A DNA stretch of 64,000 bases from positions 24,181,375 through 24,245,374 of the forward strand of contig CAIIXF020000005.1 of assembly GCA_903813345.2 (NCBI GenBank), given 5' to 3'. Positions 1-24,836 of the stretch are shown here, piece by piece. Origin of the DNA: Owenia fusiformis. Its lineage: Eukaryota > Annelida > Polychaeta > Sabellida > Oweniidae. Position 1 is the stretch's first letter. Every line of letters begins with the position of its first letter. Position numbers and translations under genes: made by a program. The notes beneath the pieces are model-generated. The model was not told where the DNA came from and did not search any database. It worked only from the letters and a program-made list of their open reading frames with translations.

Positions 1-3000
1 ATATCATCAAAGCTCCAGTATTATAATGATGATGATCCAAATAATTCTGAACTAAAGCAAAAGGTAAGGAAATCATTCTGATTTATCAGAGTCCCTCTTT
101 ATCTTAAATCCGATTAATTAATCTTTATTTGACATTATGATTTGTCAGTCTCCCTTAATATGTCATCACCAAGGTGACATATTGTTATTGTCCCCAACTT
201 TTTGTGGATGGCTGTCAGTATCTGTAACAATTTTTTTAAATCATCTACAGGTTCTCAGAAGTTCAAATTTGACTTAAGATTTGACCTGCAATGATCTTCT
301 CAAGGTCAAAAAGGTCAAAAGTGTATTTTTCAACTTGCTTCTTTACAAATCTTTTTTTCAAAATCAGCTACCTGTAGCTACAACATTTCAGAAGTTCTAT
401 TCTGACTTAAGATTTTGAGATCTTACCTTCAATTGCCTTCTCAAAGTCAAAAAGGTCTTTTTTCAACTTGTTTCAAATTGACCAAATTATTTTTCAACAT
501 CATCAGCAAGTTCTCAGAAGTTTGAATCTGACTTTAGATATGAGATTCGACCTTCAGGCCAAACAAGGTCAATAAGGTGTCTATTTAACTTGCTTCAAAT
601 TGACCATTTTTTCAAAATAGTTTTGAGATTTGACCTTTGGTTGACCTCCAATGACCTTCGAAAGGTGATGACATTTTGTCATGATAATGCTTTGACTTAT
701 ACAATGTACTTTTGAGTTACCTGCTCTTTTAGATCTAGGCTGTGGAACTCGCTTTGTATGGAAATCTCTATATTTTCACAAGTCCCTGACAATTCATGAG
801 ACCATGTGGTATAAAAGATATTTAACTAAAAATATTACATCATATTGACTTTTTCCTTTGATTACAAGAACATGGAATATTATGAAAAGAACCACTCTAC
901 ATGTATTGTAGACTCTATACAATACATATGCATCTACCTTTCAGGATCGGGCAGAATGGGCTGATATTAATGATCGGCTGACAAGAACATTGAGAGCTGC
1001 AGCCAATAAAGCTTACAAGGAAAAGAACCTTGATCCAGAACTGGGCCAGAAATATTTCATTTCAGGTAATACACCTGAGATTATCCAGTTTTTTTTATTA
1101 ATTTCAAATTCATTTATTGTGTCACATCATACATGAAAATGAAATGAAAATTCAACAAAGTTTACCAATTTAACATTTGTGTCCAGTGTAAGTCAATATC
1201 ATCTCAGATTGTCATATTCTACTCTACATAATCCCCTTTCTCCCCATTCAACAGTGTCTGCGAGAGAATGGGGGGAGGTCTTCACGAAAAAATGAGTTAA
1301 GTGCTATATAAGTTAAATGCTTATATGAGACAGTAGCATTAGTGTAATAATCCTCATCACAACATCTAAAACAATCAGATGCATGGTTTGCCTTGTCCTT
1401 ATATCAATTTAGATCCCATTCTACAAAATTGTGATTGTTTCAGTAACTGAACAGGAGATTGTGAGTGGCCTCCTTGAAGCAGAAGATGTCAATACCAATG
1501 TTCTGTGCTACATCAGAGAGTTTGACAACATTAACATCAATCATACAAAAGCAGGTGCAGTACAGTATATGATTCATTTCTTCAAACTACATTATTTTGT
1601 GCCTTTTTCACTGTACGATATGTATTCATATTTGAAAATAGCAGTATGAAATAATAAAGGGAGGGCATTGTATTTTTGAAATTGAATTGTTATCAAAACG
1701 TGAATAATATATTGAGATTCAATACATAGCAATAATAAACAAGAAGGAAAAAAGTGAAAATATTTCTAAGAACATTTGGGACCCACACCATTTGATTCAA
1801 CCATATTGTATCTACTCAAGTAAACCTGCTAGTATATTCACTTTCAGTGCGCTTCGTAGATTTAACAGAAGAATGGGAACCTGATGGTGAGGCTCAATAC
1901 TTCCTTGCAGAACTCAAAGACACAAAAATACCAGATATTTTATCAAATAAGAACATAACCACAAATCTAGTTGACTGGCAGCCTATTGGGATTGATGAGA
2001 ATCACGAGAAACATGTTAAATATTTGGAAAAATTGACCAATAGTTTTACAGAACACACAAAACGACTTATTGATGGGAAGTTGTCTGAAGGGACAATGTT
2101 TAAAGTTGACAATCGACTGTATACTGAAATTCTACATCATTTACATTTCTGCAGTGATAAGATCCAAATATTCTGTGGGAGGGAAGAAATACTGAACGAA
2201 ATAAAGGCCTGTTTATCAAAGACATATGAAAACAAACAGCTAGATGAAACAAAGAATGAAACAAAGGATGAAAAGAAGGCCCTGATATATAATGAAACTC
2301 CAGAGCTGGAAGAAGACAATGAATCTGATGAAGACAATGACTCTGAAGAAGATGATGAAGCTGAAAAAGAGCAAGCAACTGAAGATAAATCCCATGAAGT
2401 TCCCCCAGAAGAGAGAGATTTCTACAAACAGCGCAATATAGGAGTGTCCATGCAGTTAGAAGAAAATGCTGAATTACAGTTCAATGCTCAGCAAGGCGCA
2501 GCCTTTATGTCTGCTATGGAGAATCTACCTCCTCTAACAGAATACAACAAACCCATTGTAATACATGGACAATCTGGGAGTGGAAAAACTGCCCTGGTTG
2601 CCAAGGTCCACCAGCTTATTCCTAAGTGGTTAGGATCCAACTGTGTACGTGTAATCAGGTTCTTAGGAACATCAGCTGAATGTACTAACATCAAAGAAAC
2701 ACTCTTGAGTATCATTGCCCAGATTATAAAGGCATATGACTTAGATGATAGTAACACTAAGAGTCTTGTTGAATCAGTTGACAGCATCTCAGAGATTAGC
2801 CAAATCTTCAATTGGATCATGAGGAAGATCAGCCCAGATAAGCCTCTGGTGATCATTTTGGATTCCCTTGATCAGCTATCCTCACAGGGTCTGCCACATC
2901 ATCTTCACTGGCTACCACCCCTCTTTCCCACTCATGTACATATCATTCTATCCTGTTTTCCTGATAACAGCAAATACAATTTCCTCGCAAGTGCAAAGAA

Positions 3001-6000
3001 GTTCATTGAAGACCCCAATCGTTTCATTGAGATTCCAGCACTTGAATATGATACTGCTAGTGAGATTCTAGACATGTGGCTGAAGGATACAAGTCGTACC
3101 ATTACTGCTGAACAAAATGAGTTCATATTGGAGATCTACAAGAAGCATCAGCAGCCACTCTTTCTGAAGTTATTATTCCACAAGGCAGCCTTATGGAAGT
3201 CATATACCAGGTCTGTACTAACAATTGTGTTCTCAGACAATGGCTCATTGGTAGGCTTTTGGTTATTCATCTCTCACCTCCAGTTGATGTTTGTATGTAT
3301 GCATGCCTACTTCAACAATATACATGTACACTGTATGTGATAACTCATGATTTTATAAAAGTTTACATTGAATAACACAGTTCATATCTTTAAATTCAGA
3401 CATCTTTAGCCTGGATCATGCAACTTGGAACTACTAGCCTCCTCTTCCCCATCCCCAACACCTTTGCAGAGCTCCCTCAATTTTTGGATTGTAAAAGAGC
3501 TATTGTCCTGCAAATCGCCCACCCTAGCCTTGCCCAAGTCGGTCTCTTTTACTATCTGATTTCTATTATGACTGGCGGTAATAATTCAAGATCAGATAAG
3601 TAAAAAATACCGACTTGGGCAAGGCTACGCCCACCCAGGAACATTGTGATATAGTCATTATATGAGTGATATTCAACTCTCTCGTTTACACATTGATTTC
3701 AGAAATGTTTCCTCATAGCATATTGAATTAAACATTACTTGTAGAATTAAATGTTTGCTTTGTATTAGGGAATGAGTGAGGGGTTTTCACTGTAATATTA
3801 AATTTTTAGCTTACTGATCTGATTGCAGAGTGTATGAAGTGAGATTGGGACACAATGTCAGACAGGCCATTGATGAACTATTTGAAGATCTTGAGAAAAA
3901 ACATGGAACAATTCTTGTACAGAAAGCCTTGGGTAAAATGATTAATAATATTTATCATTATGCGTGTACATATTTCAAAGCTTTTATCAGTTGTCCTACT
4001 GAATGTCGATTATGAGGGATTAGACAATAGCTGTCTGTGTCTTTGTTTGTCCAATTCATCCATATGTCTGTGTGTTGGGCCAGGAGATAGCTCATATACC
4101 AGTTTACAGATTTGCTTCAAATTTTATTCGTTGTTGACTTATAGGCATAAAACCACAGCTGGAGAAAGAATTTGCAATATTACACTTGACACGTACTGTA
4201 CTTTATATGGTAGGTTACCACCAGTATTGTATTGTTACAGTCTCCAATTTTTGGATGGTGTTTGTTGGTTGGTGTTTGGCATCTGTAACATTGTGACATT
4301 GCTTGGTGGTCAGCATCTGTAACTAATGACAGGTGGTGACATTTTGCATGTTAATACCTTGTTTACTTTATGTTTCATATTTTTGCGGATATTCTTAGGC
4401 TATTTGACTGCATCCAAGTCTGGATTAAGTGAGACAGAAATGGAGGATGTTCTCTCACTGAGTGATGAAGTGCTCCAGGATACATACCTTTATCACCTAC
4501 CTCCCAATGAAAAACTCATCCATCTTCCTCCTTTGCTATGGACCCGTATTGTCAATGATATCGGACAGTACTTTGTGACAAGGAAATCAGATGATGAAAC
4601 TGTGAATGTGTGGTACCATAGACAGTTCCATGAGGCAGCACGAGAGAGGTACTTGCGCACCTCTCTGGACAGTAAAAACACACTACATGTGGAACTGGCA
4701 GATTATTTCAAGGGTACCTGGGGAGAACAAGTGAAACCACTTGAGCTGTATAAAGTAAAGAAAGGAGTATATCCGGATGCAGATAGAAAGGTCTCAAGCC
4801 AACCATTGCAATACTCTACTGAGGGTGTGGGTTTATTCAATAAGCGCAAGATGAGTGAGCTTCCATACCATTTAGTCCACAGCAAACAACTTAGGTAAAT
4901 GGGCAACATTCACAATACGCTAGTATTTCACATATTTTCATAATTTAGAAAGAGATATGTTGAAGATAAGTGACAAAACTAAAACTTTTAGCAATGGTGT
5001 ACCCCGGGGGTGTACCTTAGAATCAGATTAGTATACAAGTCCCTTGTAAACAATGAAGTAGTAGGTACACTGTATATAGAAATAGAATTTTACTTCCATT
5101 TTTTCTAAAGTGAAAAGAAATTCATAACCATACATTCATTCCTTAATATTCAATGCTTTTTAGGTATATTGTGGAGGAGATTGTGTGCAATTTTGACTGG
5201 CTATACTGCAGATGTGTTGCCTCTGGTATAGGAGAAATACTCAATGATATCAAAGTAAGTCCCTTTTAACCATTGAATTGGATAAGAGGTCTAGCTCTTG
5301 AGATTGCTGTTTATGGGGCCCTTTCAAATCTCCGATATGACAATTTTCATTTTAAGTATCACAAGTTTTTTTTATCTAAATATTAGCAAGTATTGTACAA
5401 AAGGTGTAGCAGCATGAAAAATATTTGTACATATAGCTATCCTTTAAGGTAACTCATATTAAACAAGCAAACCTGATGATGTTTTACTTTAGTACATCCT
5501 GAGTGTGATAGAAGAGGAGGGTTTAGGAGTAGAGTATACAGAGGAGACCAATGATATAGAGTTTATACACAGCCTTCTTCTACTCTCTAAGGACGTCTGT
5601 AAGAGAAACGTCAAGATGCTGGCTGTTCAGGTAAACTTTTCATATATATTATGTATGTCCTTTTTATAAGCTAACATGGTAAGTTATTGCAGTCATTCAC
5701 TTATCCTTCTGTCTGTCCTGTCTGTCAACAATAGTGGCACATTTCAAAACTTTTGCCAATAGGATTCCTATTTTTCTCGTTTTGATCAGTTCGACTCCTG
5801 ATTCCAAGGCTTGCCTAATTTCAAAATGGCTGCCAATTTTGTTGTGGAAAATTCACTTTTAGCTATAAAGGAATTGTTGCATTAATTTGCATTTAAGTTT
5901 ACAGGTATGTTTTGAAATGTATAACCAATGAGGTGGTAAAGTCTGAACAAGAATTCTTTAAAATCCAAAATGTCTACCACTTTTATTGCAGAAAAATCAT

Positions 6001-9000: not shown

Positions 9001-12000
9001 CTACAGTATATTGGCACCTATTTCTGGAAATTGGTAAAATTTTAGTGTAAATGTCAGTTATCAGTAAGAAAAAATTAAGTAAGATCAATGGAAATATTAC
9101 ATGTACTTAAATTTTTGGTAGTTGATCACCCCTCATCATTACACCTCTTTTCACATTCTTCAGATTTTACTCTGCAACATTCCTTCTTGCACACTTCCGG
9201 GTTGCATTCTTTTTCACAAGTTTTCCTTTTATTTTGCAAGCTTTCTTGCAACCTTTTTGTCATCTCATATCTCTGTGCAGTTTGTATCTGAAGCAATAAT
9301 GAGAACTAAGGTACCAAGTTCAAAGCTTTCTATTGAGTTAAGCAAAGCGTCATTTCATATGGTACCAAGTTCAAAGGTATTGCTCGATAGAGCAATATAT
9401 TAGGCACATTTTCTGAAAAATTCAAAAGATTCTGTTCAGTGACCTTTCCCAAGCTCCTTTAAACTATTTTTCAGTCACATTTTCAGAGGGCTGAAAAAGT
9501 TATTTCATCATGTTTAGGGTCATTCTGACCACGGCCATGTGATCCTGGTCATGTAAATGTTATGTGGAACTAGTTAAACTGACTGGATGTCAAAACAGAA
9601 CTCTGATATCTTGGTCCAAAAAATGTTTGAAATCCAGCATTGATTTGTCATTTCCTGTTTTGTCATTTCCTGCTTAACTACCATGGCACCTTAACCCTTT
9701 CACGATGATGGGCCCCATATGGAACCCTATTATGTAATATCTTTCAGGATGATAGGCTCCTTTTGGCACCATTATTTTTATTCATATACATCAATGAAAT
9801 GACAATATCTCCTGTTCTATTCAGTATTTTTACACCAAATTTTTACTTGTTAAAATGTGATAATTCTTACTAAAAATTATATTTCAGTGACGAAAATTGA
9901 GGCATACATGTAGGTGCCAGGGTATGGGTATCTTGCAGATTTTCCTTAAAAACTGCTATTACTTTTCAGTCACCTGACTAACATTTTCCTCTTGTATTCA
10001 TGTCGGGAAAGGATTAAACAAATCTACATATACATTGTAACATTATGTTCTTGATATTAGGGAAACCGTGTGAACAATTAAAAATATCAACATTAAGCCA
10101 GCTTTATTGTAGAGAAAGAAACTATTTTTATGTATGTATAATCTGCATGACAGTTATTCATTTAACATAAACAACATAGGATCTCTTTGAAACATCAATG
10201 TGTTCATAATTCTATCGGGCATCTGGACCATCAACAGTTGCTTTTTCACATTCTTTTTTACATTTTTCTTTTCCGTTACACTTTTTTATGCAACAGTTCC
10301 TCTTGCAATCCTTAGGGCCACATTTCCTTCTACAGTTTTTCATCTTATTTTCATCCATGTCTTGGCAATCCTGCTTGCACTTGTCCTTTTTATGTTCACA
10401 TTTTTCAGTGCAGTCTATAACTGTAAAAAAAGTGGTAGTGGTAAGTAAATATCAGTTACTAAATTGAAAAAAATCAAATTACAGGAAAGGGTGGATGTGA
10501 AATGTTCTTTTAAAAATCATTTGGTGGGAAAAATGTGGATTCTTTTTCTAAAAAAAAGCTGTCTAAAGAATTTGGTTCTTTATTTGAAAATTGAACCCCA
10601 TTTTTGATTTTTGCAAAACCGACCCATTTTCAAATAAGACTCATTGCTCAGAAATGATGTATTCAAATTTTTAATTATGTTTCATCACTGCGCCTTGTTT
10701 TCTTTGGCTCTGCCCTCAAAGGAGGCAGGGTGGTGGTAGTCACTCATTAACATAAATAAGATTTACATAAAGCATCGAATAAATCAACTCTTATGATATG
10801 TTTTGCTGCTCTTACTTTCAACAGATGCTTCTTCACATTCTTTTTCACATTTTTCCTGTCCATCACACTTTTTCATGCAACAGCTCTTGCAATTCTTGCT
10901 GCATTTCCTTTCACATTTCTCCAATTTATTTTCATCTATGTCTTGGCAATCCTGCTTGCACTGTTCTTTTTTATCACCACATTTTTCAGTGCAGTCTGTA
11001 ACTGTAAAAATGATTGAAAAAAACATGTACAAAATGTTCACACTGTAACTGCATGTTTTAAAAATAATAAGGGGGATAAACTACACATGTTTAAGAGCAC
11101 TTGTACGTAACCATATAGATTTATTGTACTTTCGGGATAGGTTGTACCTTTGTTGTATTTACATGCCCGTTTGAGTTGAAAGGTATAAGGAAATTAGTTG
11201 TAATTAGATCACTGGAAAAAACAATTGAGTGGAGGACAGTAAACCCTGGGAACCATGATATTAAACGTTCACTTTAACCTCCCTAATATACATGCTCATG
11301 TAACTAATTATCGTAACTTAAGGACTTTTTTCAAATTGACAACATTTTTGAAATATTATGAAATTTGATCCAATTTTTTAAAAGGATGCCCAATTTCTAA
11401 ATAAGGCCCATTTTCTCAAAAATGAAGCCCAAAAATGAAGCCCATTTTTATTTAAAAAATAAAAGAAATATGCGCACAATTTTTTTCTTAGGTCCGCCAG
11501 TATGATAGTCACTCATTTAACATTAACAAAACATAAATGCAATCATGACTCTTACCATCTGTTTCAACGCTCTTATTTGCAACAGATGCTTTTTCACATT
11601 CTTTTTTACATTCTTCTTTTCCATCACACTTTTTTACGCAACAGTTTCTCTTGCAATCCTTGCTGCATTTTCTTTCACAGTTCTTCAATTTATTTCCTTC
11701 CATACCTTGGCAATCCTGCTTGCACTGTTCTTTTTTATTTTCACATTTCTCAGTACAGTCTTTTACTGTAAATATGATAGATAATTGTAACTTATACTAA
11801 CATTATTTAAAACTAGGCCTTATTTTTCAAAAAAAAAACTGTCACCTGCTTAGTTCAATCAAGGACGTCCTTGGTTCAATCATCTTGCACCTGTTTCCTA
11901 AAGAGGGTTTGTTTCTTAATATTCTTACCAGTTTTATTTTTATTGGAGCCCTTTGGCATCACAGTCGTCTCCATTGGCAACATGGTTGTTTCTTGTGACT

Positions 12001-15000
12001 CACACTTCTTGCCCTTACATTTTTTGTCAGTTGTCACTGTTGGCTTCTCAGTTGTTTTGTCAAAGTCATTTGTTTCACCACAGTCAGTTGTATTATAAGT
12101 TTCATCTGAAGCTTCTGGCATCACATATTTTCCCCAAAACAATATGGCATCTGTCTTTAGGTCACGAATGAAGAAAATAAAAGGATGGTCACATCGCACA
12201 ATGTTGGGAGGGGGAGGTCCAGATCTTCCACCCGCAATAACTGTCACTGCTGCTGCCTCAGTACCTTTAATATTAATATATTAAGCATTTTGCTAATGTT
12301 TCTGTATATACTGGAAAGGTCCCACTGTACAGAATGTACAAATTGTAACCTATAGAAACTGAGATTGTAGATATTAACAATTGAAATATTGTTGAACTGA
12401 CACAATCTCTATACTTGTCCCAATGTCAAGCGACAATGAAATAACTTAAAGGTATAGGTATTGTGGATAATTGTTAATATATCATAATTATAATTGATGT
12501 AAGAAGCTCACCTTCCTCATTGACTTCTATGAAAGCCTCATGAATGACTTCATCTATTGACAGCCTGCTATTAGTTCCCATATTGCTCAGGTCTGCCCCG
12601 GAAAACACATGATCCATACCCATTCTTTTCAAGTTATTGTTCAAAATATACCTCTCCTTTAGCTTGAACTTTGGAAGATATACAGTGATGTTTCTATCAG
12701 GCACCAGATACTTTAATTCACTTTCCAGTGTTTTTGAGTCTAGTTTTGCTTCCAATTCTTCAATAGTGGTGGAGCCATTGTTTGGGAGTATTATGACCAT
12801 ACTCACACAGTCTCCAACATATGGGAGTTCCACAAGTTGAGCATCTAGGATAGATGAAGGGCTACTTGTGTATTTAAAGAAAGTGGGAGGACGTGTCATC
12901 ATGCAAACTTGTACAACTTCATCTGCTGAAACGTGAAAATCTGCTTTTTCTGTAAGGGCTTTATCAAATTTGTATTTCCATGCACCTTTGAAATAGATTG
13001 CATTGACAAGCACAATTACAGTCATGGCATCAATATTGTCTGGCTGGATGACATCCTTAAGTTTATTGTTGGTGACAGTCGCTATCCAGTCATTAATATA
13101 TTTACGACTTTTTTCAGTGTCTTTGAAATTAAGTTTCTCAATCCTGGCAGCTGTACCAAAATATTTGAGAATGTCAGTCACAAAGGAGGAAAGTAAATGT
13201 AAGGTCAAGTCAGGATAGATGCGGTTGACTGTGTTCAGCTTAACAGATGTCTTGCCATTTATTGAATCATCCAGGCATTTTCTCATGCTATGGACTGTTC
13301 CTGTCATACCATCTACATGAAAGATCTTTGCAATGGAGTCGGAAGTATGCCCAGCAGTACCTAATAGAACCATCATAAAGCATGTGGCAATGCTATATGG
13401 ACTAAACAACAGATTAGCATTGGGGTCATCTTTGATCATATCCATGTGCAAATCAATGCCAAATTGATTGAAAGCATTTACTATGCTTGCATCACAATCT
13501 TTCTCACACTTGCCCTTTTGTCCAGTTGCCATTGTTCCCATGAAGAGAGACATCACACCAAGGGTCACCGCCACGAGCATCATTTTGCAGGTCATCTTCC
13601 TCAGGTGACAGGATCCTACCTGACGTGTTACTGATCTTTCATTATATTTTATAATAATTTCTATTCTGTGTGGTAACTGTATATGTGGTATACATAGCGT
13701 CATCAACATACGTTGGCGATTCCACTCCAAATTATTTAGCTTGAACATGTCCATTGAATGATTTTCCAAGACTGTACCTGATAAATTAAAAAATATTTAA
13801 CCTTCCTAACAACATAATTATAGTCTTATCTTCATACATGTTTGTTCTTTTCTAGTTCTTTGTATTTCCTATATATTGAATAAGGAAAATCTCAACTGCT
13901 TCGTTTATTCCTTGTAGAGGATTATTGTGAATTAATTCAACCATCTGAATAAATAACAGGCATACCATTTAGCTAAGGGATTGTATAAAAACATTAAAGT
14001 TTATTTCATCATTAATATAGTACCCTTATTTCATGAACAAATTAATACATTGAATTTTTATTTGCTAAAATAATATCTTCTTTAGGGCAATAAACATTTA
14101 CCCCCTCCCCTAAAGAACATTAAGTTTTGCGAATATTGATATAACAATGCATTAAATGACAGATTTCTGGATTTATATATGCCAGTGGATTGTCAGTTTA
14201 TGAGTTGAGCTGACTTCATGCTTTTTGTATTCAGATTACAATTGTAGTAATATTAACATTCAAAGTTATTAACCATAAACAGTAATATATATGGAGATAA
14301 TGATATTAATGTTTTCAGCTAAATAAAGGCAAAGGGCATACTAGATGTTTAAAAAATGTATATTTGTAGTAGAATCATGCAAGCATATAATTTTGTCACT
14401 TAAACTTCTATAACAAGAGCATTTAATGATTTTTTATATGCTGTAAATTGCTTTAATGTGAAGGCCGTTTTTGATTTGGTGGATGGATAGAAACCACCAA
14501 ATTAAGTCTTCGCCAATTTTTTTAAAGTGAAATTCCTGGGAATCCCCTTTCGTACCTTGCACGATAAAAATTTGGTGAATCATGAATAAAATGTCAATTT
14601 TAAACTATTTCCAAAGACTTTCAGATTCCCCGCTGGTTTATAGAAAACAATCTGATACCAGGAGGGATACAATTTTGTTATTGGTGGCGAGATATGAACT
14701 GAGTAATATGATTGATGATGGTCAATCCGCCAAATTTAAATAGCACCAAATTAAAGCAAATTACAGTAGATAAAGAGCTGCATTGATGCAGATTTAGAGC
14801 AACTATACATACACAAAACTTGCATTTCTGTGACATCATTTGTTTTTATCGTACCTAACAAAAGGTACGATATTGTAGTCAGCTTGGTGGGCGGGCGGGT
14901 GGGCGGCGGGCGGCGTCTCACTTTTCAGCTTGTCTACAGGTTTCCAGCCAAACCATTTGAGGGATTCATCTGAAATTTTCAGGGATGTTTCTACATATCA

Positions 15001-18000
15001 ACGTCAAGAACTGATTAGTTTTTGGGCATTCTGGGTAAATCTTAAGGTGGCCATTTTGGATTTTCCGTCCTAAAATCTTCACTTTCAAGACTTGTCTACA
15101 GGTTTCCAGCCAAACCATTTGAGGGATTCATCTGAAATTTTCAGGGATGTTTCTACATATCAACGTCAAGAACTGATTAGTTTTTGGGCATTTTTGAAAA
15201 ATCTTAAGGTGGCCATTTTGGATTTTCCGTCCTAAAATTTTCACTTTCAAGACTTGTCTACAGGTTTCCAGCCAAACCATTTGAGGGATTCATCTGAAAT
15301 TTTCAGGGATGTTTCTACATATCAACGTCAAGAACTGATTAGTTTTTGGGCATTCTGGGTAAATTTTAAGGTGGCCATTTTGGATTTTCCGTCCTAAAAT
15401 CTTCACTTTCAAGACTTGTCTACAGGTTTTCAGCCAAACCATTTGAGGGATTCATCTGAAATTTTCAGGGATGTTTCTACATATCAACGTCAAGAACGGA
15501 TTAGTTTTTGGGCATTCTGGGTAAATTTTAAGGTGGCCATTTTGGATTTTCCGTCCTAAAATCTTTACTTTCAAGACTTGTCTACAGGTTTCCAGCCAAA
15601 CCTTTTGAGGGATTCATCTGAAATTTTCAGGGATGTTTCTACATATCAACGTCAAGAACTGATTAGTTTTTGGGCATTCTGGTTAAATTTTAAGGTGGCC
15701 ATTTTGGATTTTCTGTCCTAAAATCTTCACTTTCAAGACTTGTCTACAGATTTTCAGCCAAACCATTTGAAGGATTCATCTGAAATTTTCAGGGATGTTT
15801 CTACATATCAACGTCAAGAACTGATTAGTTTTTGGGCATTCTGGTTAAATTTTAAGGTGGCCATTTTGGATTTTCCGTCCTAAAATCTTCACTTTCAAGA
15901 CTTGTCTACAGGTTTCCAGCCAAACCGTTCAAATTTTTACATATGTTACACAGTGATAAGTTCTAGAGCTGATTAACTTTTCTGGGGCCATCTTGCTTTC
16001 TTGGTCAACAAGACCACAATGCTGTGTTTTAGGTACGATATTGTTCACGTCTGTGCCTTGTTGAAAGTTTATGAAAAGTTCATATTTTCCATAAAACTAA
16101 GATTTCAATGGAATAACAGGTGGCCCACAAGTAGAATATCAGCTTCCCACTTTGACCACAGATCAAATAGAATATGTAAATTCAAAACATATCCGGATTC
16201 TTATTGTTATAACTAAACTACCCTCAACCACATATGAATGTATATGTATCATACAATAAAGTTTGATTAAAAGTAATTAATTCAATAGTAGTAAAAGCGA
16301 GGAATCAGCAAGAAGGACTTTTTCTAGTAGCAGCAAAATTCACAATTCTTATCTTCTTATCAAATCTGGTAAAAAGTCCTATTTTTCATGATCTTCTCAA
16401 ATGGTTGCAAAAGGGACCTGCTTAGGTGCATTTATGCACCCTCTGGGTCTCTGAGGATCGTATTGGCCCCATGCAAGTCCATACGACAATCCAACGCATT
16501 AGAGGTGGTGTTCACCGTCTAGGACCTGCTTTATTGCTGTATATATCACTGATTTACTCAATTGTGTAGAATTCAGGGCAAATGGTCACAAGTTCTATTC
16601 CACCTTAGTTTTGTGGACATGCCTGTAAAACACAAGAGGAGAGGATAGTGTAATTTTTGTTAGAAAACTCAACAGATTGCAAATTTCTTTTCTTTATAAG
16701 AATCTACAAAATTGCTCAGTAAATATGAGCACCTCGTAAAGTCTCATTTTGTCCCGTCCTCAGCCCTGCCATGTTTTTGTTGTTTCAAGGTTACAGGGTG
16801 TTCACAAAAATGCAATATAATAGAGAATGAAGTGTGATACTTTGTAGGGAATGCATGTTTTGTTATAGAGTAATATATTCAGTTCATCAAAAATTCTTAA
16901 CCACAACAATATGCGGCTGCTACCCACCACTGCATATTAGCATACAATATGAATAATGACATAGAGGATACATGTATATATAGAATATGTATTTTTTATT
17001 CATAAAGATATTGTTAATTATGATAAAATGTCATCACCTGATTGCATCACAAAAGTGAAACAATTGTTACAGACATTGATAAATGCAGTCACAAAAATGG
17101 TGTCCATGTCACCCTTTCTTGATGGTGACATGAATGAAATATCACCTATGAATATGACATTTTACCTCCAGTATAGTGGGGCCAGGCATAATTGATAATA
17201 ATACGTATAAGGAGAATAAGATGTATGCGTCGAAATGAACTAATTTAACTGATCCAAAAAGGATGTCTTTCATGAGAAATTATAATGATCAAGGCTTGTT
17301 GTGACTAAGTATTTTCCTTCTAGAATCATTATAGTGTATCTTTAGTAGTTGGAGCATGCTGATCTGGGGAAATATTGTGACTAGAATTAAGAAATATAGA
17401 CCAAAGAGCAGGGGTAATATTAGCATACAATATGAATAATGACAACCCTTAGGGCTAGGCACAAAAGCTTTCGAACCCCTCACTCCCTTCGGTCGTTTGG
17501 GGTACAGAAAATGTTTGTGCCTAGCCCTGCGGGGTGTATTCGACAATATTACATCTACTCTGAGGTCTATATTACAATTCAAACATGAAAACTCACCAAA
17601 ATGTTTCGAATATTCATTATGGTCCGCCATTACTACGGCCCGCCGTTATGACGTCACACATTACACCTATTACCAGGGGTTTTGTTCGCGAATATACCCC
17701 GGATGAAATGTTGACTTTGTTTACAGTTTATAGAAGGCGTGAATACAGTCATGTTCGAATTTCAATTTAAGAACTTGCATTGGCACCTTCACATAATCGA
17801 TGTGTGATACATAAATATATTGTACATATTGAGTATTTTTCACATAAACCTTGGCAGACACTGTACAATACATGTTTAATGAATAAATTATGTACCTTAC
17901 ATTGTAGGTTCCAAAGCAGATCCCTCAAAAGATGGCTATGTGTGCATATTGGATACAATGAGAGTTGCTTTCTCACTAAAAGATCAGGGAAAAACTCTTC

Positions 18001-21000
18001 TAGTGCTCTTCTCTGCTGATGAGAAATATCTGGTTGCAAGGACTAAGGATGTAATCCATATATGGAGCTTGGAGAGGCAAATACGCCTACACACAATAGG
18101 CAAAGATTCAGGAGAATATTCATTTTACGGGGACCCAGATTTTTCTGGTGTGACATTTCTGTTAGCAGACTATACACTAGTTTTCCCCAAGATGGGCTAT
18201 TCTAATGAAGGCACACTGACTGCATACAATATTGAAACAGGGAAGAATTTATTTGAAACTGAGTCTGAAGGGGACAAAGATGGTCACTATGGGATCAACA
18301 TAATTTGCTTTGATTCAGTTTACAAGCGAGTGGCAACAGCATCTTCAAGTGGTGGGATTGTCAATGGAATCCGTGACAAGCCAGTAAGTGTGTGGAATAT
18401 GCAGAATGGAAAGCTGATGTCCCTTGTCAAACAAAACAAATGGCATCACAATACAATAGTCATAGCGGGTACAAATGACCAGTTTCTTTTGTCAACTCCT
18501 AACCCAAAAGGCCATATCCTCATCCATTATATAGGAACATTCAATAAACCTTGTTCTAATGGGGTTTTGGTCTATACCTTAACGTACCATTCCGAGGTTG
18601 TGTTTCAAATTGGTTTGACTGCAGACAGCACCAATATGGTAACTGCTGGCCGTGACAATGTTTTAAGGCTATGGAACTGGGGGAATATTGAAATGGAATG
18701 TAACTCACGTGTAGAAGAACTGGGTGAGAGGATTACTGAAGTAGAGGCTTATCCTGAAGACACTATGTGTGAAGCTGCAGCCGTTGTCCTCTCCAGGTGA
18801 GATATACCATAACATATTCATCATCTCCCAATCCCATATTCTTTAACATGGGCCAGGAAATAGATGTAGGGAATGAAAACAAAGTGTTCAATGAGAAATG
18901 TGATTTTGGTTTCCTTTATTTTCACTATTTTAAAAATGTTCTTCAAAATGATTTCAAATAAACACCTTATGGTTGAAGCATTTAAATTCAGAAATATTGA
19001 GATGCAACTGATAGTCATTTTATATGTCACCACCAAGTGATGACATATTGTTATAGTCTCCAACTTTTTGTGGCGGTGATTAGTGTTTGGTATCTGTTAC
19101 AAATGGCAGGTGGTGACTTTTGCATGTTAATATCATATTTAATTGAATTGTAATTGAAAAATGAATGTTGTGTTGCAGTCAATACAGATTAGCTATTATA
19201 GCATTGAGAGATGGCACTATCCTCTTCCACGATGTAGACAGCAATGAGATGGAGAACTCCATTAAGTTAGACTTGGAGTCAGTGTCCCACATGATTCTAG
19301 CAGATGATGGCCAAAGACTGGTGGTGACGGGTTCATACTCCAAGAAAGCAATGGTCGTCAATATTAACACTAGTAAGTAAATGTATCAATAGCGAGTGAA
19401 CAAATGAGTCGAAATGAATATTATATATGAGCCACTCAGATAATGAATGAGTATTGATTATTAGTGAGTGCTAAAACAAGTGAGTAAATGAATGTAAAAT
19501 TAAGCACTTGGTAACAATAAATTACTTGAAAGTAAAGAATGGTGAGTAAAGGAACAACAGTGAGCCAATGAGAAAAAATGAAAACTTAATAAATAATTAG
19601 TGAAATATATACTTGTAATGGCAAGTGAGTATATGAAGCACATGAGAAAAAAATGATTTTATGGTAGTAAATGAATGTCTTATAAATGATGAATCGATGC
19701 TGAATGGATGACTTGTTGAGTTAACTAATAACTTTTAAGGTAAATTAATAATCTCAGAGTTGATGAAAAACTAAATTGAATGAATGACTTTATTAGTATA
19801 AGCATAACAACAATTTATTGCAGGAGAGGTAGATCATGTCTTGATTAGTCCCAAGAAAGGCTCTGGAGAGGGAGGCAATTCAATCTCCTGTGTAGCAGAA
19901 CATAATGGTGTATGTGTAATAGGCCAGGGGGGCATGGCATGCTATGGTGTTGTATGGGATATCAACACAGGTATATTGGATGTACAGTACATTTAGTGAG
20001 CTTAGCTAATAATAAAATAAGGCTAGAATAATTCTAGCCTTGTGACATATTGTTATGGTCTCTGTTTTTTTTGTGACGGCAGGCTGGTGATCGGCGGTTG
20101 GTGATCAGCTGTAACAAATTGTTAAAACTTCCAATAACTTAACAAATACTGTTTAGACTGACTTCAGTTTTTTTTCAAAATCATCTACAAGTTTTCAGAA
20201 GTTCAAATCTTACTTTATATTTAAGATTTGACCTTCAGTGACCTTTTCAAGGTCAGAAAAGGTCAAAAAGGTATTTTTTCAACTTGCTTCAAATAAACCA
20301 ATTTTTTTGAGATTTTACCTTCATTAACCTTCTCCGGGTCAAAAAAGGTCAAAAAGGTATTTTTTCAACTTGCTTCATATATACCAATATTTTTTTCAAA
20401 ATCATCTAGAAGTTTTCAAAAGTTCAAATGAGATTTTACCTTCATTAACCTTCTCCGGGTCAAAAAAAGGTCAAAAAGGTATTTTTTCAACTTGCTTCAC
20501 ATAGACCAATATTTTTTCAAAATCATCTAGAAGTTTTCAAAAGTTCAAATCCGACTATAGATTTGACCTTCAATGACATTATCAAGGTCAAAAAAATTTC
20601 GACCTTCAGTGACCTCCTTAAGGTCAAAAAGGTCCTTTTCAACTTGCTTCAAATTGACCAATTTTTTCGAAAATCATCTACAAGTTCTCAGAAGTTCTAA
20701 TCTGACTTTAGATTTGTTTCACCTTCAATGACCTTCTCAGGGTCAAAGAAACTTTTTTTCAACTTGCTTCATCAAATGGAACAATTTTTTTTTTAAAGTC
20801 CTCTACAAGTTCTCAGAAGTTCAAATCTGACTTAAGATTGAACTCATACACTAGGTGGTGACACTAGGTGGTGACATTTTGTCATGTTTGCCTTGTTTTG
20901 ATTTTATCAGTATAGTGTACATGTATTGTAATACAATCGGAATGGCTTCATAGGAGTGAGATAGAGTCAGTCATGAACTGCTGATCACTTCAATTTATTT

Positions 21001-24000: not shown

Positions 24001-24836
24001 TTTGGTTCAAATTTTACATGCTGATGCCTAGAAACATAGTAGCTCTGTTCGAGAAAAAATTTTTAAGATGGCAGCTGATCTTCAGAATTGGTGCCATTTT
24101 TCATTTTCATTTTCGTAATCTTTGGTAACTCAACTGCCGTTCGGTGGGATTAGCTACTCCGTGGAGTTGCTGTTTTTTTAATTCTTTATTCTGTTTGCAA
24201 CTGCCTTTTATCTGAATTAATGATCATATCTATTCTATAGGGGTTCATTTATTGCCATTTAATTAGAAATTTCAAACCATGATGTTGTTTGCTGTTACAG
24301 GATCAGTGCGAGTGATGGACATAGCCACACGCAAGTACAAGTTTAAAATGCAGCACAAATCCTCAGTGAAAGTATGCGAATTCACAAATGATAACCAGGC
24401 TCTTGTAACAGCTGCATTCTGCCATCTATTGGTCTGGAATCTAAATAATGGCCAACTCATGCGTATGCTAACATGTCACACAGCATTCATTAATGACATG
24501 ATCTCAACTCTTGGTGGCCGTTGCCTCGTAACATCAGGCGAGGATCATCGAATTGTCATCTGGAACAAGAAAGAACAGAAATCCATCACTATATTTGAAG
24601 GACAAAGTAGGATAGATCTGATTGCCGTGAGCAAGGATATGTCATATATTGCCTTTGTGCCAAATAATATCAGTCACATGTGCCTGCTGAAGCCTAATAA
24701 GGCGTTGGGAGAGGCCATGGGGGGTCAGCATGAATATAAGGTACCAAAGAGTTTGATACAAGCCCAAGCATATGCCATGGCTTTCTCAGGCTTGAGAGTG
24801 CAAAAGAAAACAAGCCAGGCGTGTTGTATTATTTAG
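1..24836 (+). CDS. NACHT and WD-repeat domain protein (NWD1/NWD2-like), 5' partial, 17 exons
   Basis: Seen: exons 1-63, 945-1065, 1444-1554, 1848-3210, 3829-3932, 4399-4894, 5164-5254, 5493-5630, 6663-6846, 7941-8121, 8337-8488, 17908-18796, 19179-19372, 19824-19970, 21180-21250, 21735-21888 and 24301-24836. All have GT-AG borders and matching phases, giving 4995 coding bases or 1664 residues plus stop; the N-terminus lies before the window. Residues about 248-290 are a Glu/Asp-rich linker. Walker A GQSGSGKT is at about 339-346 and Walker B (LVIILDSLDQL) at about 432. WD40 repeats fill about 1000-1640, with blade ends such as IWSLE, VWNMQNG, VWDINTG, VWNLNNG and IWNKK. The protein ends CCII-stop. 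Family knowledge: STAND ATPases of this type are signalling scaffolds or switches in which NACHT binds nucleotide and WD40 senses ligand; the ligand here is unknown. Assignment to NWD1 versus NWD2 is not made. Confidence 0.9.
64..944. repeat. Intron 1 with a hairpin-headed 'GGTGACA' repeat element
   Basis: At about 160-200 an inverted pair (ATGTCATCACC / GGTGACATAT) is followed by TTGTTATTGTCCCCAAC. A body of AAGGTCAAAAAGGTC-type motifs runs to about 660, and one arm (GGTGATGACATTTTG) recurs at about 664-680. Shorter copies lie at 4234-4362, 19022-19135 and 26876-26995 (+), and at 32515-32660, 44862-45145 and 63168-63292 (reverse). A longer one is at 20035-20905. Confidence 0.6.
1848..3210 (+). 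CDS. Exon 4 of the NWD-like gene: acidic linker plus NACHT ATPase core
   Basis: This largest 5' exon (1363 bp) follows a TTTCAG acceptor and ends at an AG|GTCTGT donor. It encodes a helical segment (start VRFVDLTEEW), an acidic stretch (bases about 2296-2420), Walker A (GGA at 2567 through ACT at 2590) and Walker B (2843-2878). Reading continues in frame past the donor to 3340 as intron, so the donor rests on phase agreement with the exon at 3829 and homology across the join (SYT-RVYEVR). Confidence 0.9.
3211..4398 (+). repeat. Introns around exon 5, with fragments of dispersed repeats
   Basis: Positions about 3512-3630 hold an inverted pair (GCCTTGCCCAAGTCGG / CCGACTTGGGCAAGGC). Positions about 4020-4150 resemble the 'ATACCAG..TTTGG.TTCAAATTTTAT' unit of the 22845-24165 element. 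Positions 4234-4362 are a short copy of the GGTGACA family ending GGTGGTGACATTTTGCATG. The only coding part is exon 3829-3932. Confidence 0.4.
4399..4894 (+). CDS. Exon 6 of the NWD-like gene: helical region after NACHT
   Basis: The exon starts GYLTASKSGLSETEMEDVLS, a winged-helix-like segment also seen after the NACHT core of NWD and TEP1-type proteins. It continues through YHRQFHEAARERY and ends SELPYHLVHSKQLR. The TTCTTAG acceptor and AG|GTAAAT donor give phases 1 and 2, matching the exons on both sides. Confidence 0.9.
5631..6662. repeat. Intron with a decayed 'TTCAAAATGGC' repeat and a GGCCCGTAGCCAGG element
   Basis: Positions about 5690-6180 carry degraded copies of the 'caaaatggctgcca' unit. 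At 6203-6403 a ~200 bp element starts CCCGTAGCCAGG and ends CCTGGCTACGGGC, a terminal inverted repeat typical of a MITE. Related fragments lie at about 8577-8760 and 42411-42500. Confidence 0.5.
6847..7940. other. Intron, no recognised feature
   Basis: AT-rich intron sequence. I see no coding exon, no terminal repeats and no tandem array. Confidence 0.5.
8589..8608. repeat. Homopolymeric G run inside an intron
   Basis: An uninterrupted run of nearly 20 G lies within a degraded copy of the CCCGTAGCCAGG-type element (about 8577-8760). Its length is probably variable and hard to sequence. Confidence 0.8.
9126..9290 (-). pseudogene. Degenerate fourth cysteine-rich module (or alternative 3' exon) of the serpin gene
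   Basis: Read on the minus strand, the frame ending at TGA (9126-9128) encodes CEKECNPEVCKKECC, then a CEKRC pair and stop. This matches the distal half of the three intact modules upstream. In the phase required by the serpin introns, the obvious acceptor (CTTCAG before ATACAAACTGC) gives an early stop; a weaker acceptor nearer the cysteines would be in phase. It lies 3' of the proposed poly(A) signal, so a relic is more likely than a used exon. Confidence 0.5.
10103..10108 (-). promoter_or_regulatory. Polyadenylation signal of the serpin gene
   Basis: TTTATT on the plus strand is AATAAA on the minus strand, about 105 bases after the serpin stop codon (10212-10214). Position and sequence fit a canonical signal. 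Confidence 0.6.
10212..10420 (-). CDS. Serpin cysteine-rich module C, terminal coding exon
   Basis: The exon starts after TTTTTTACAG, carries the same ladder (CTEKC, CKQDC, CRRKC, CC, CKKEC) and ends at TAG 10212-10214 after TVDGPDAR. Where modules A and B have a GTAAGAG donor, this copy has GTCCAGA, so it reads through to a stop. That makes it the natural last exon. Confidence 0.85.
10212..13595 (-). CDS. Secreted serpin with a C-terminal tail of three cysteine-rich modules, 5 coding exons
   Basis: Seen: coding exons 13595-12512, 12264-11929, 11765-11556, 11001-10816 and 10420-10212 total 2025 bases or 674 residues; all introns are phase 1. Met at 13595 is chosen because it opens a signal peptide (MTCKMMLVAVTLGVMSLF); the frame is open further upstream. 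Serpin marks: LLFSPYSIATCF, NAIYFKGAWKYKF, IDEVIHEAFIEVNEEG, hinge GTEAAAVTV, and the C-terminal strand PFIFFIRDLKTDAILFWGKY. The hinge is small-residue and Thr-containing, as in inhibitory serpins. The reactive loop holds Arg-Ser-Gly near the expected P1, suggesting a trypsin-like target (inference). After the fold come a Thr/Lys linker and three ~60-70 residue modules rich in CxxxC pairs. The whole gene lies antisense in an intron of the NWD-like gene. Confidence 0.9.
10816..11001 (-). CDS. Serpin cysteine-rich module B (phase 1-1 exon)
   Basis: 186 bp, 62 residues, same cysteine ladder as module A (CTEKC, CKQDC, CERKC, CC, CEKEC) with TTTTACAG acceptor and GAAA|GTAAGAG donor. Clearly a tandem duplicate of module A, diverged mainly in its C-terminal tail, which is 8 residues shorter. 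Confidence 0.85.
11556..11765 (-). CDS. Serpin cysteine-rich module A (phase 1-1 exon)
   Basis: Exactly 210 bp between TTTACAG and GATG|GTAAGAG, encoding 70 residues with 12 cysteines. The pattern is CTEKC..CKQDC then CERKC..C..CC..C..CKKEC. It has many Lys/Glu residues and little hydrophobic content. Because the exon is symmetrical (phase 1 at both ends) it can be duplicated or skipped without breaking frame. Confidence 0.85.
11929..12264 (-). CDS. Serpin exon: reactive-centre loop, C-terminal strands and Thr-rich linker
   Basis: The acceptor splits the hinge Gly codon (GAG GAA G|GT ACT GAG). The exon encodes GTEAAAVTVIAGGRSGPPPP, the NIVRCDHPF strand and the serpin end (WGKYVMPE). About 55 Thr/Lys-rich residues with N-glycosylation-type sites (NTT, NKT) follow. 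The donor is ACT G|GTAAGAAT; reading through it gives 15 further residues to TGA at 11876-11878, a possible shorter isoform. Confidence 0.88.
13600..14849. other. Serpin 5' flank and intronic sequence
   Basis: No coding exon was recognised. The serpin frame remains open upstream to an ATG at 13769, but those 58 residues look unlike secretory sequence and probably represent 5' UTR. A non-coding first exon ending at a CGTCAG|GTAGG-like donor (about 13620) is possible. The rest is AT-rich. Confidence 0.4.
14849..16040. repeat. Hairpin-headed element with seven 162 bp tandem repeats
   Basis: The element starts with ATCGTACC / GGTACGAT arms (14849-14871), then a GGGCGG-rich stretch (14888-14915). 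A core of tandem repeats each contains TGTCTACAGG, at 14931, 15093, 15255, 15417, 15579, 15741 and 15903: exactly 162 bp every time. One hairpin arm (GGTACGATATTG) closes it at 16033-16044. Despite the period of 54 codons, no long ORF runs through it. Confidence 0.85.
16045..17907. other. Intronic sequence with a small inverted repeat, no gene recognised
   Basis: A 70-80 bp inverted repeat lies at about 17451-17526 (AGGGCTAGGCACAAA / TTTGTGCCTAGCCCT). The motif 'ATTAGCATACAATATGAATAATGACA' occurs twice (about 16936 and 17419). Positions 17600-17710 are locally richer in GC and CpG. I see no supportable exon. Confidence 0.4.
17908..18796 (+). CDS. Exon 12 of the NWD-like gene: first large WD40 block
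   Basis: This 889 bp exon follows a 9.4 kb intron. It carries at least three WD40 blade ends (VIHIWSLERQ, VSVWNMQNGK, VLRLWNWGN). The acceptor is ATTGTAG and the donor AG|GTGAGA. The upstream exon (8337-8488) ends in phase 1 and joins as GGT, restoring frame. Confidence 0.92.
19022..20905. repeat. Introns with two GGTGACA-family elements around exons 13-14
   Basis: A short copy at about 19022-19135 starts TATGTCACCACC and ends GGTGGTGACTTTTGCATG. A long copy at about 20035-20890 begins GTGACATATTGTTATGG next to a separate palindrome (AAGGCTAGA..TCTAGCCTT), runs through many 'AAGGTCAAAAAGGTC' units, and ends with a doubled ACTAGGTGGTGACA. Exons 19179-19372 and 19824-19970 lie between. The intron 19373-19823 shows TGAG/GAATGA-rich low-complexity sequence only. 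Confidence 0.6.
21858..22230 (+). repeat. Five tandem copies of an exon end with its 5' splice site
   Basis: The end of exon 16 and the start of the next intron (GATACTGTGCTGTTGGGAGT..GATG|GTTTGT plus ~40 intron bases) recur at 21858, 21931, 22004, 22083 and 22156. The period is 73, 73, 79 and 73 bp. Each copy keeps the GATG|GTTTGTAA donor. The intronic part contains an in-frame TAA, so use of a later donor would truncate the protein. Confidence 0.9.
22845..24165. repeat. Hairpin-headed element with (GTCC)n and ~145 bp 'atggcggcc' tandem repeats
   Basis: A hairpin (TATCCCACCGAAC / GTTCGTGAGGGATA) at about 22850-22879 is followed by a (GTCC)n tract (22890-22960). About eight repeats of a unit with ATAACTCAAATACCAG, GATGCCTAGGGACA and TCAAGATGGC follow. 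The single closing arm is GTTCGGTGGGATTA at about 24139-24153. Reverse-oriented relics lie at about 49317-49720. The 172-residue frame at 22736 is repeat-derived. Confidence 0.8.
24301..24836 (+). CDS. Terminal exon of the NWD-like gene, ending in a CaaX-type box
   Basis: The exon encodes the last WD40 blades (LLVWNLNNGQ, HRIVIWNKKE) and a tail ending KTSQACCII before TAG at 24834-24836. The last four residues Cys-Cys-Ile-Ile fit the CaaX prenylation consensus and resemble the CCIL end of Ral GTPases (established knowledge). Membrane anchoring is inference. Confidence 0.9.

What the first reader, a model, noticed from the sequence alone, without database searches (positions are those of the whole stretch)
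10212..13595. Serpin fused to a tail of exon-duplicated cysteine-rich modules
After a complete serpin fold the transcript continues through a Thr-rich linker into three homologous modules, each one exon, each with about 12 cysteines arranged as CxxxC pairs. The exons are symmetrical phase 1-1 and all five coding exons join in frame (2025 bases). The spacing recalls cysteine-stabilised helical folds, but I know of no named domain that fits. A serpin bearing a repeatable Cys-rich tail could be anchored, multimerised or targeted by it. The architecture may be undescribed.
Basis: partly seen in the sequence, partly recalled or inferred. Interest (0 to 1): 0.82.

Follow-up and report, generated by a model that had tools for sequence, protein, structure and literature searches.

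The report
Serpin with disulfide-rich helical tail
An invertebrate gene joins an ordinary protease-trapping protein (a serpin) to a tail of repeated cysteine-packed helical modules that match no domain in the libraries searched here, and related genes in the same genome carry shorter or simpler versions of the tail.

Summary
On the minus strand five coding exons join in frame (2025 nt, 674 aa, GT-AG): signal-like start, complete serpin (Pfam E 2.8e-104), Thr-rich linker, three homologous exons with exactly 12 Cys each. A paralog 4.2 Mb away has the same design with TWO modules. Module exons are 85-87% identical, falling to 38-53% just outside two of their borders; dN<dS in 10 of 10 module pairs; all 12 Cys are invariant in 5 of 5 modules. 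Three more distant paralogs carry, behind a similar linker and phase-1 intron, one exon with a single CxxxC-x(8-15)-CxxxC unit; none was found behind 5 other serpins. The five tailed serpins group together (100/99). An eroded fourth module lies downstream. Pfam and NCBIfam lack the module; its AlphaFold model is three helices, with weak, non-significant likeness to plant alpha-hairpinins and ascidian vanabin2. The bait loop is identical in some tailed and tailless paralogs, so I read the tail as a localisation/avidity handle on a trypsin-type inhibitor; that is inferred. No transcript data were available and no other eukaryote genome could be searched.

The parts
12512..13595 (-). Exon 1: signal-peptide-like N-terminus (by eye), short CEKDC segment, serpin body up to the hinge (EVNEEG)
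   Evidence: frame, donor GTGAGC; Pfam Serpin; 94.6% DNA identity to paralog L006
11929..12264 (-). Exon 2: reactive-centre loop (GTEAAAVTVIAGGRSGPPPP), last serpin strands, 62-residue Thr/Lys-rich linker (14 Thr, 10 Lys, 3 Cys)
11556..11765 (-). Exon 3: 12-Cys module 1, phase 1-1
   Evidence: 86.7% identity to the paralog exon, 53.4% in the 60 nt after its donor, but 81.7% in the 60 nt before its acceptor
10816..11001 (-). Exon 4: 12-Cys module 2, phase 1-1; its donor lies upstream of the place used by module 1
10212..10420 (-). Exon 5: 12-Cys module 3, ends DGPDAR-stop (paralog ends DDPDAR-stop)
   Evidence: 84.7% identity to the last paralog exon, 38.3% in the 60 nt before its acceptor
10103..10108 (-). 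AATAAA polyadenylation-like signal about 100 nt after the stop; also in the paralog at L006:7404
9126..9290 (-). Relic of a fourth module: acceptor and first part still alignable, then an in-frame TGA and two gaps (4 and 13 nt in the alignment); downstream of the poly(A) signal
   Evidence: 78% over 37 nt to module 2, E 3e-5; as DNA query it found only its own place in the genome

Best explanation
A secreted inhibitory serpin that traps a trypsin-type (Arg-specific) protease and carries a C-terminal handle. SHOWN by sequence: complete serpin domain with the inhibitory-type hinge (EEGTEAAA); Arg-Ser in the bait loop; Thr-rich linker; tail units encoded by phase-1 exons that can be duplicated or lost without breaking the frame. 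PREDICTED: each 12-Cys module is a three-helix unit that could be stapled by up to six disulfides; the simpler tail of the distant paralogs is a two-helix hairpin. INFERRED: the bait loop is the same in some tailed and tailless paralogs, so the tail does not set protease preference. It sets where the inhibitor works, by multivalent binding of the modules to an extracellular surface (matrix, mucus, tube, glycan or a protein partner), more modules giving more avidity. The tail arose once, as a single CxxxC...CxxxC exon in the ancestor of five serpins, and grew into a 12-Cys module that was exon-duplicated in the C5 pair.
For: Gene model; Serpin 2.8e-104 (9); 202 distinct PDB sequences at E<=0.001, the 60 shown being serpins or serpin-fold proteins; paralog with two modules, same linker and end; exon/flank identity contrast, synonymous excess (Fisher p 0.003 on two pooled pairs; 0.01 and 0.07 singly; sites not independent), Cys columns 12 of 12 invariant against 18 of 48 other gap-free columns; CxxxC...CxxxC exon in 3 of 3 C12 paralogs, 0 of 5 control serpins; grouping of the five 100/99 on a tree of 12 rows; GTEAAAVTVIAGGRSG identical in the window gene, L019, L020 and in L024, L025, L026, in whose downstream 3.8-3.9 kb no such exon was found; helical models; tail net charge +8, pI 8.3.
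Against: No transcript, protein or binding data. Module 2 has net charge -3, against a purely electrostatic handle. Module dN/dS of 0.25-0.57 shows only moderate constraint. The 12-Cys module did not find the C12 units in a genome search at E<=10, nor did one C12 unit find the others or the modules (its four other matches, E about 2, lie on C6 and C8), so their homology rests on gene position, intron phase, linker, motif and clade, not on sequence score. The models rest on 5 and 3 sequences and have pTM below 0.5.
Confidence: 0.5

Rival explanations
1. The tail is a payload: alpha-hairpinin-like modules with their own activity (antimicrobial, or a second trypsin-type inhibitor), perhaps cut free from the serpin.
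For: CxxxC-x10-CxxxC core in 5 of 5 C5 modules and CxxxC-x8/14/15-CxxxC in 3 of 3 C12 paralogs; the weak PDB leads are a vicilin alpha-hairpin (E 0.31) and VBP-8 (Z 3.1). Plant alpha-hairpinins include trypsin inhibitors with a functional Arg between the CXXXC motifs and can be released from tandem precursors (PMC7191063 passages). The x10 loop of the C5 modules holds one invariant Lys (K25), so a Lys-type inhibitory site is not excluded.
Against: The matches are not significant. The x10 loop holds no Arg in 5 of 5 C5 modules. No cleavage site between serpin and modules was sought.
Confidence: 0.18
2. The tail is a cross-linking device: modules multimerise the serpin, or knit it into a matrix by inter-chain disulfides.
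For: 36 Cys in the tail, 3 more in the linker, variable module number.
Against: 12 Cys per module, invariant and even in number, fits closed pairing inside each module; which Cys pair is unknown.
Confidence: 0.15
3. The tail is a metal-binding or redox appendage that works like ascidian vanabins: Lys/Cys-rich helices that bind or reduce metal ions.
For: Vanabin2 (1vfi) was one of only two chains that Foldseek passed on for the module model (Z 2.2, rmsd 4.4, 49 aligned, 26% identity). Vanabins are Cys-rich with functional Lys/Arg (PMC9486056 passages).
Against: Z 2.2 is far below the level that says to trust; Foldseek itself gave 0 matches at E<=10; no vanabin in the PDB sequence searches with tail, profile or two single modules; 12 Cys against 18 (or 16).
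Confidence: 0.1
4. The module exons belong to a separate or dead gene and the serpin ends in exon 2 (stop at 11876).
For: Read-through of the donors of exons 2, 3 and 4 soon reaches stops (11876, 11509, 10784), and an AATAAA lies inside exon 2, so shorter isoforms are possible.
Against: Same order, phase and terminal peptide in the paralog; the two intron-2 read-through ends differ while the modules are conserved; no module exon has a start codon before its first Cys and each begins at an acceptor.
Confidence: 0.07

Closest known systems
Serpins (Pfam PF00079), inhibitory type
   Same: Complete domain, hinge EEGTEAAA, Arg-Ser in the bait loop
   Different: C-terminal extensions described in PMC8233489 (passages), thermopin and aeropin, are single tails, thermopin's packing on the serpin body. 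Alpha-2-antiplasmin's C-terminal tail is recalled, not looked up. In the listings and passages I saw, none is an array of Cys-rich modules.
Plant alpha-hairpinins / vicilin-buried peptides
   Same: C-x3-C-xn-C-x3-C, helix-loop-helix, tandem modular precursors (PMC7191063 passages); weak leads 7lvg and 6o3q
   Different: C5 modules have 12 Cys and three predicted helices; fused to a serpin; animal-type genome; no significant sequence or fold match
Vanabins of ascidians
   Same: Cys/Lys-rich helical protein; vanabin2 weakly superposable
   Different: 12 against 18 or 16 Cys (PMC9486056 passages); no sequence match; I know of none attached to a serpin (recalled)

Membership tests
Serpin superfamily | Full-length serpin domain by profile | tested here: met
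   PF00079 349.7 bits (cut-off 27), profile positions 2-370 of 370
Serpin superfamily | Inhibitory-type hinge of small residues (definition recalled) | tested here: met
   EEGTEAAAVT in window and C5 paralog
Serpin superfamily | Loop insertion and covalent protease trapping | not testable with these tools
   needs protein
alpha-hairpinin | C-x3-C-xn-C-x3-C motif | tested here: met
   C12 paralog tails 3 of 3; also present as part of the C5 modules
alpha-hairpinin | Four Cys per unit (PMC11591084 abstract start in the listing) | tested here: not met
   C5 modules have 12 in 5 of 5, so the window modules are not filed as alpha-hairpinins; the C12 units do have four
alpha-hairpinin | Two antiparallel helices joined by a loop | tested here: inconclusive
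   C12 unit predicted H2-13, H19-30, pLDDT 78.6, pTM 0.44, 3 sequences; Foldseek found no PDB match
alpha-hairpinin | Cys1-Cys4, Cys2-Cys3 pairing | not testable with these tools
   no coordinates or mass spectrometry
Vanabin | 18 (or 16) conserved Cys | tested here: not met
   12 Cys; definition from PMC9486056 passages
Vanabin | Vanabin fold | tested here: inconclusive
   Z 2.2 to 1vfi; 0 Foldseek matches at E<=10
Vanabin | Vanadium binding or reduction | not testable with these tools
   needs protein

The most novel reading that the evidence does not exclude
A new disulfide-rich three-helix domain, so far seen only as a C-terminal serpin tail, that grew from a single hairpin exon into a duplicable 12-Cys exon and makes an adjustable-length, multivalent targeting arm: a natural series (none, 1 hairpin, 2 modules, 3 modules) on the same Arg-type bait loop.
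Probability: 0.45. Interest if true: 0.62.

Novelty: new variant of a known kind. Interest (0 to 1): 0.5.

Why it matters
Serpins are mostly single-domain, and their cofactors usually bind the serpin body or short extensions (recalled). A group in which the bait loop stays nearly fixed while a modular tail appears, grows, shrinks and decays by exon duplication gives a natural experiment on how an inhibitor is localised or made multivalent, and points to a Cys-rich helical module that the family libraries searched here (Pfam, NCBIfam) lack. It is not a new kind of inhibitor.

Tried and rejected
Module as a known Pfam or NCBIfam domain: the only listing among 5 members scanned is SPRR2 at E 0.38 in 1 of 5 (Pfam); NCBIfam 0 of 5; whole tail RGS_DHEX at E 5. 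PDB by sequence: Nesprin-2 0.37 and T-cadherin 2.6 for the whole tail, 0 for the profile, 7lvg 0.31 for one module, 0 for another: taken as chance or lead only. Foldseek: 0 PDB matches at E<=10 for both models, so the second look had 2 chains and 0 chains to align; BFVD 4 matches, best E 3.1, rejected. Prokaryote or viral origin of the module: 0 relatives confirmed by tblastn from 80 and 221 pattern matches, two peptide patterns each. The degenerate module as a fourth coding exon: rejected for an in-frame TGA and a position beyond the poly(A) signal. Rfam: 0 matches at gathering scores. The first translation of the C5 paralog began at a wrong upstream ATG and was redone. A first blastn block suggested 91.5% identity across exon 1, intron 1 and exon 2 together; a global alignment gave 82.8% for intron 1 alone, which I use.

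Limits: no eukaryote collection could be searched beyond this one genome, so spread to other species is unknown. Of some 40 other serpin loci (my estimate from the exon-piece list) only 5 were read downstream of the bait-loop exon, for about 3.5-3.9 kb each; a longer intron could hide a tail. The tree used 12 rows, the 12 loci cut; for its rows L012-L018 the end of exon 1 was not trimmed, so they carry some intron-derived residues, and its root is a midpoint. The search of G000 scores only the best candidates, so its counts are lower bounds. PHROGs and PADLOC were not searched.
Full report
What is there. On the minus strand of the window five exons join in frame: 13595-12512 (1084 nt), 12264-11929 (336), 11765-11556 (210), 11001-10816 (186) and 10420-10212 (209), 2025 nt in all, with GT-AG introns and phase-1 junctions. 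The protein of 674 residues starts with a hydrophobic signal-like stretch (by eye), has a complete serpin domain (Pfam PF00079, E 2.8e-104, residues 41-411; best solved relatives conserpin and serpins B3/B4), a 62-residue linker with 14 Thr, and a 201-residue tail with 36 Cys and 47 Lys. The three tail exons are homologous: 12 Cys each in the pattern Cx3C-x6-Cx3C-x10-Cx3C-x3/4-C-x2/3-CC-x3-C-x5-Cx3C. Outside the modules no stop-free 55-residue stretch in six frames of the 64 kb reaches 11 Cys.

A paralog in the same genome. G000 holds the window at C5:24.18-24.25 Mb. The module as protein finds five places, the three here and two at C5:28.384-28.386 Mb; the last module exon as DNA finds the same five. 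That second locus (L006) is a serpin gene whose searched exon-1 stretch is 90% identical, with the same intron positions, linker and terminal peptide (DDPDAR against DGPDAR), but two modules instead of three: 1848 nt in frame, 615 aa. Module number therefore varies within one genome.

Are the modules real exons? Between the two genes identity is 86.7% in the first module exon and 53.4% in the 60 nt after its donor; 84.7% in the last module exon and 38.3% in the 60 nt before its acceptor; 93.2% in the 120 nt after the stop and 46.0% beyond. Not every border is sharp: the 60 nt before the first module exon keep 81.7%. An AATAAA lies about 100 nt after the stop in both. dN is below dS in 10 of 10 module pairs (ratio 0.25-0.57). 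Pooled over the two positional pairs, synonymous changes are in excess (Fisher p 0.003; singly 0.01 and 0.07; sites are not independent). Cys columns are invariant in 12 of 12 cases against 18 of 48 other gap-free columns (p 6e-5). No RNA data were available, so splicing is inferred.

Simpler tails in three more relatives. The next-closest serpins, three on C12 (66, 66 and 57% identical over the searched stretch), have bait-loop exons that run on into a linker rich in Thr, Ser, Lys or Glu and reach a phase-1 donor. Downstream, each has an exon-like frame behind a pyrimidine-rich phase-1 acceptor with one C-x3-C-xn-C-x3-C unit (n = 14 in L019, 15 in L020, 8 in L021) and a stop. The same motif scan gives 0 hits in the 3' regions of five other serpins (L024-L028, 19.3 kb) and, in the whole window, only the three modules and the relic. 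On a tree of 12 exon-1 proteins the five tailed serpins are split from the other seven with support 100/99 (ultrafast bootstrap/SH-aLRT, midpoint root). The 12-Cys query did not find the C12 units, and the L020 unit did not find the others, so their common origin rests on clade, position, phase, linker and motif.

Turnover. A relic of a fourth module lies at about 9126-9290: 37 nt from its acceptor on match module 2 (78%, E 3e-5), then come an in-frame TGA and gaps of 4 and 13 nt in the alignment; as a DNA query it found only itself. The serpin exon 1 of the two C5 genes is closer (dS 0.085) than exon 2 (0.168) or the modules (0.35 and 0.31 for positional pairs), and closer than intron 1 (82.8% identity), which suggests conversion of the serpin part, turnover of modules, or both.

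Fold. AlphaFold2 on five module sequences gives three helices (3-18, 24-45, 50-65), mean pLDDT 77.1, pTM 0.47; the C12 unit gives two (2-13, 19-30), pLDDT 78.6, pTM 0.44. Foldseek found no PDB match at E<=10 for either. The second look listed two chains for the module: vicilin-buried peptide VBP-8 (Z 3.1, rmsd 3.8, 46 aligned) and vanabin2 (Z 2.2, rmsd 4.4, 49 aligned); both are far below what that tool calls meaningful. By sequence the sole PDB hit of one module is a vicilin hairpin, 7lvg, E 0.31. I take an alpha-hairpinin-like core (C-x3-C-x10-C-x3-C) extended by further Cys and a third helix as the working picture; disulfide pairing is not shown.

How it most likely works. The bait loop of the window gene, GTEAAAVTVIAGGRSG, is letter-for-letter the same in L019 and L020 and in three C2 serpins (L024-L026) in whose downstream 3.8-3.9 kb no such tail exon was found; the C5 paralog and L021 vary it but keep Arg-Ser-Gly. 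Arg at P1 is inferred from loop position; it points to trypsin-type targets. Since the loop is nearly constant and the tail varies from none to one hairpin to two or three modules, the tail most likely alters where, or how multivalently, the inhibitor acts. Lys-rich modules (net +4, -3, +7 here; +8, +6 in the paralog) on a Thr-rich stalk suggest binding to an extracellular surface, but module 2 being net acidic argues against simple charge. Payload, cross-linking and metal-binding rivals stand in the rival list.

What is known. Seven paper searches on serpins showed no serpin with such a tail in their listings; five of them listed only part of the papers that matched (15 of 227, 20 of 205, 20 of 52, 20 of 28, 12 of 25). 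I saw passages of PMC5691223, PMC8233489 and PMC4224354. PMC5691223 reports a Cys-rich C-terminal extension, but on an alpha-2-macroglobulin. PMC8233489 says N- and C-terminal extensions were left out of its superfamily alignment, so such tails would not have shown there, and describes tails of thermopin and aeropin. Only open-access papers were searched, so 'undescribed' is provisional.

Organism. Unnamed. A 498-Mb assembly whose serpin hits fall on contigs numbered C1 to C12 and one other contig, C483, fits the annelid Owenia fusiformis (505.8 Mb, 12 chromosome-scale scaffolds; PMC9977687 passage), but this is a guess.

Noticed in passing
window 1796-3337, 4323-4895, 17883-18797, 24267-24833 (+): NACHT, NWD1-type winged-helix and WD40 stretches on the plus strand on both sides of the serpin gene: the serpin probably lies nested, antisense, inside an NWD1-like gene (not shown that they form one gene).
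   Followed up: partly
window 9126-9290 (-): Eroded fourth Cys module with in-frame TGA.
   Followed up: yes
L016 (C9:24372075 and 24372253), L018 (C1:52893423 and 52893593), G000 C3:19158153 and 19158358: Other serpin loci with two adjacent bait-loop exons each (the first two), which look like alternative exons that would switch protease specificity.
   Followed up: no
L006:6180 and 6201: Paralog module 1 has two phase-1 donor-like sites 21 nt apart: possible isoforms.
   Followed up: no
window 12512-13595 against L006:3478-4561: Exon 1 of the two C5 serpins is 94.6% identical although intron 1 is 82.8% and the module exons 85-87%: possible gene conversion.
   Followed up: partly
window 34717-41137 (-): Large open frames that look like a non-LTR retroelement; reverse transcriptase and zf-RVT in 39011-41137; 34717-37848 was not scanned.
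   Followed up: no
window 48046-49251 (+) and 41579-42382 (+): Rhodopsin-type GPCR frame (7tm_1) and a short-chain dehydrogenase frame.
   Followed up: no
C2:17806077-17817417 and C483:224465-235425: Similar arrays of serpin matches on C2 and on contig C483, perhaps an uncollapsed haplotype.
   Followed up: no
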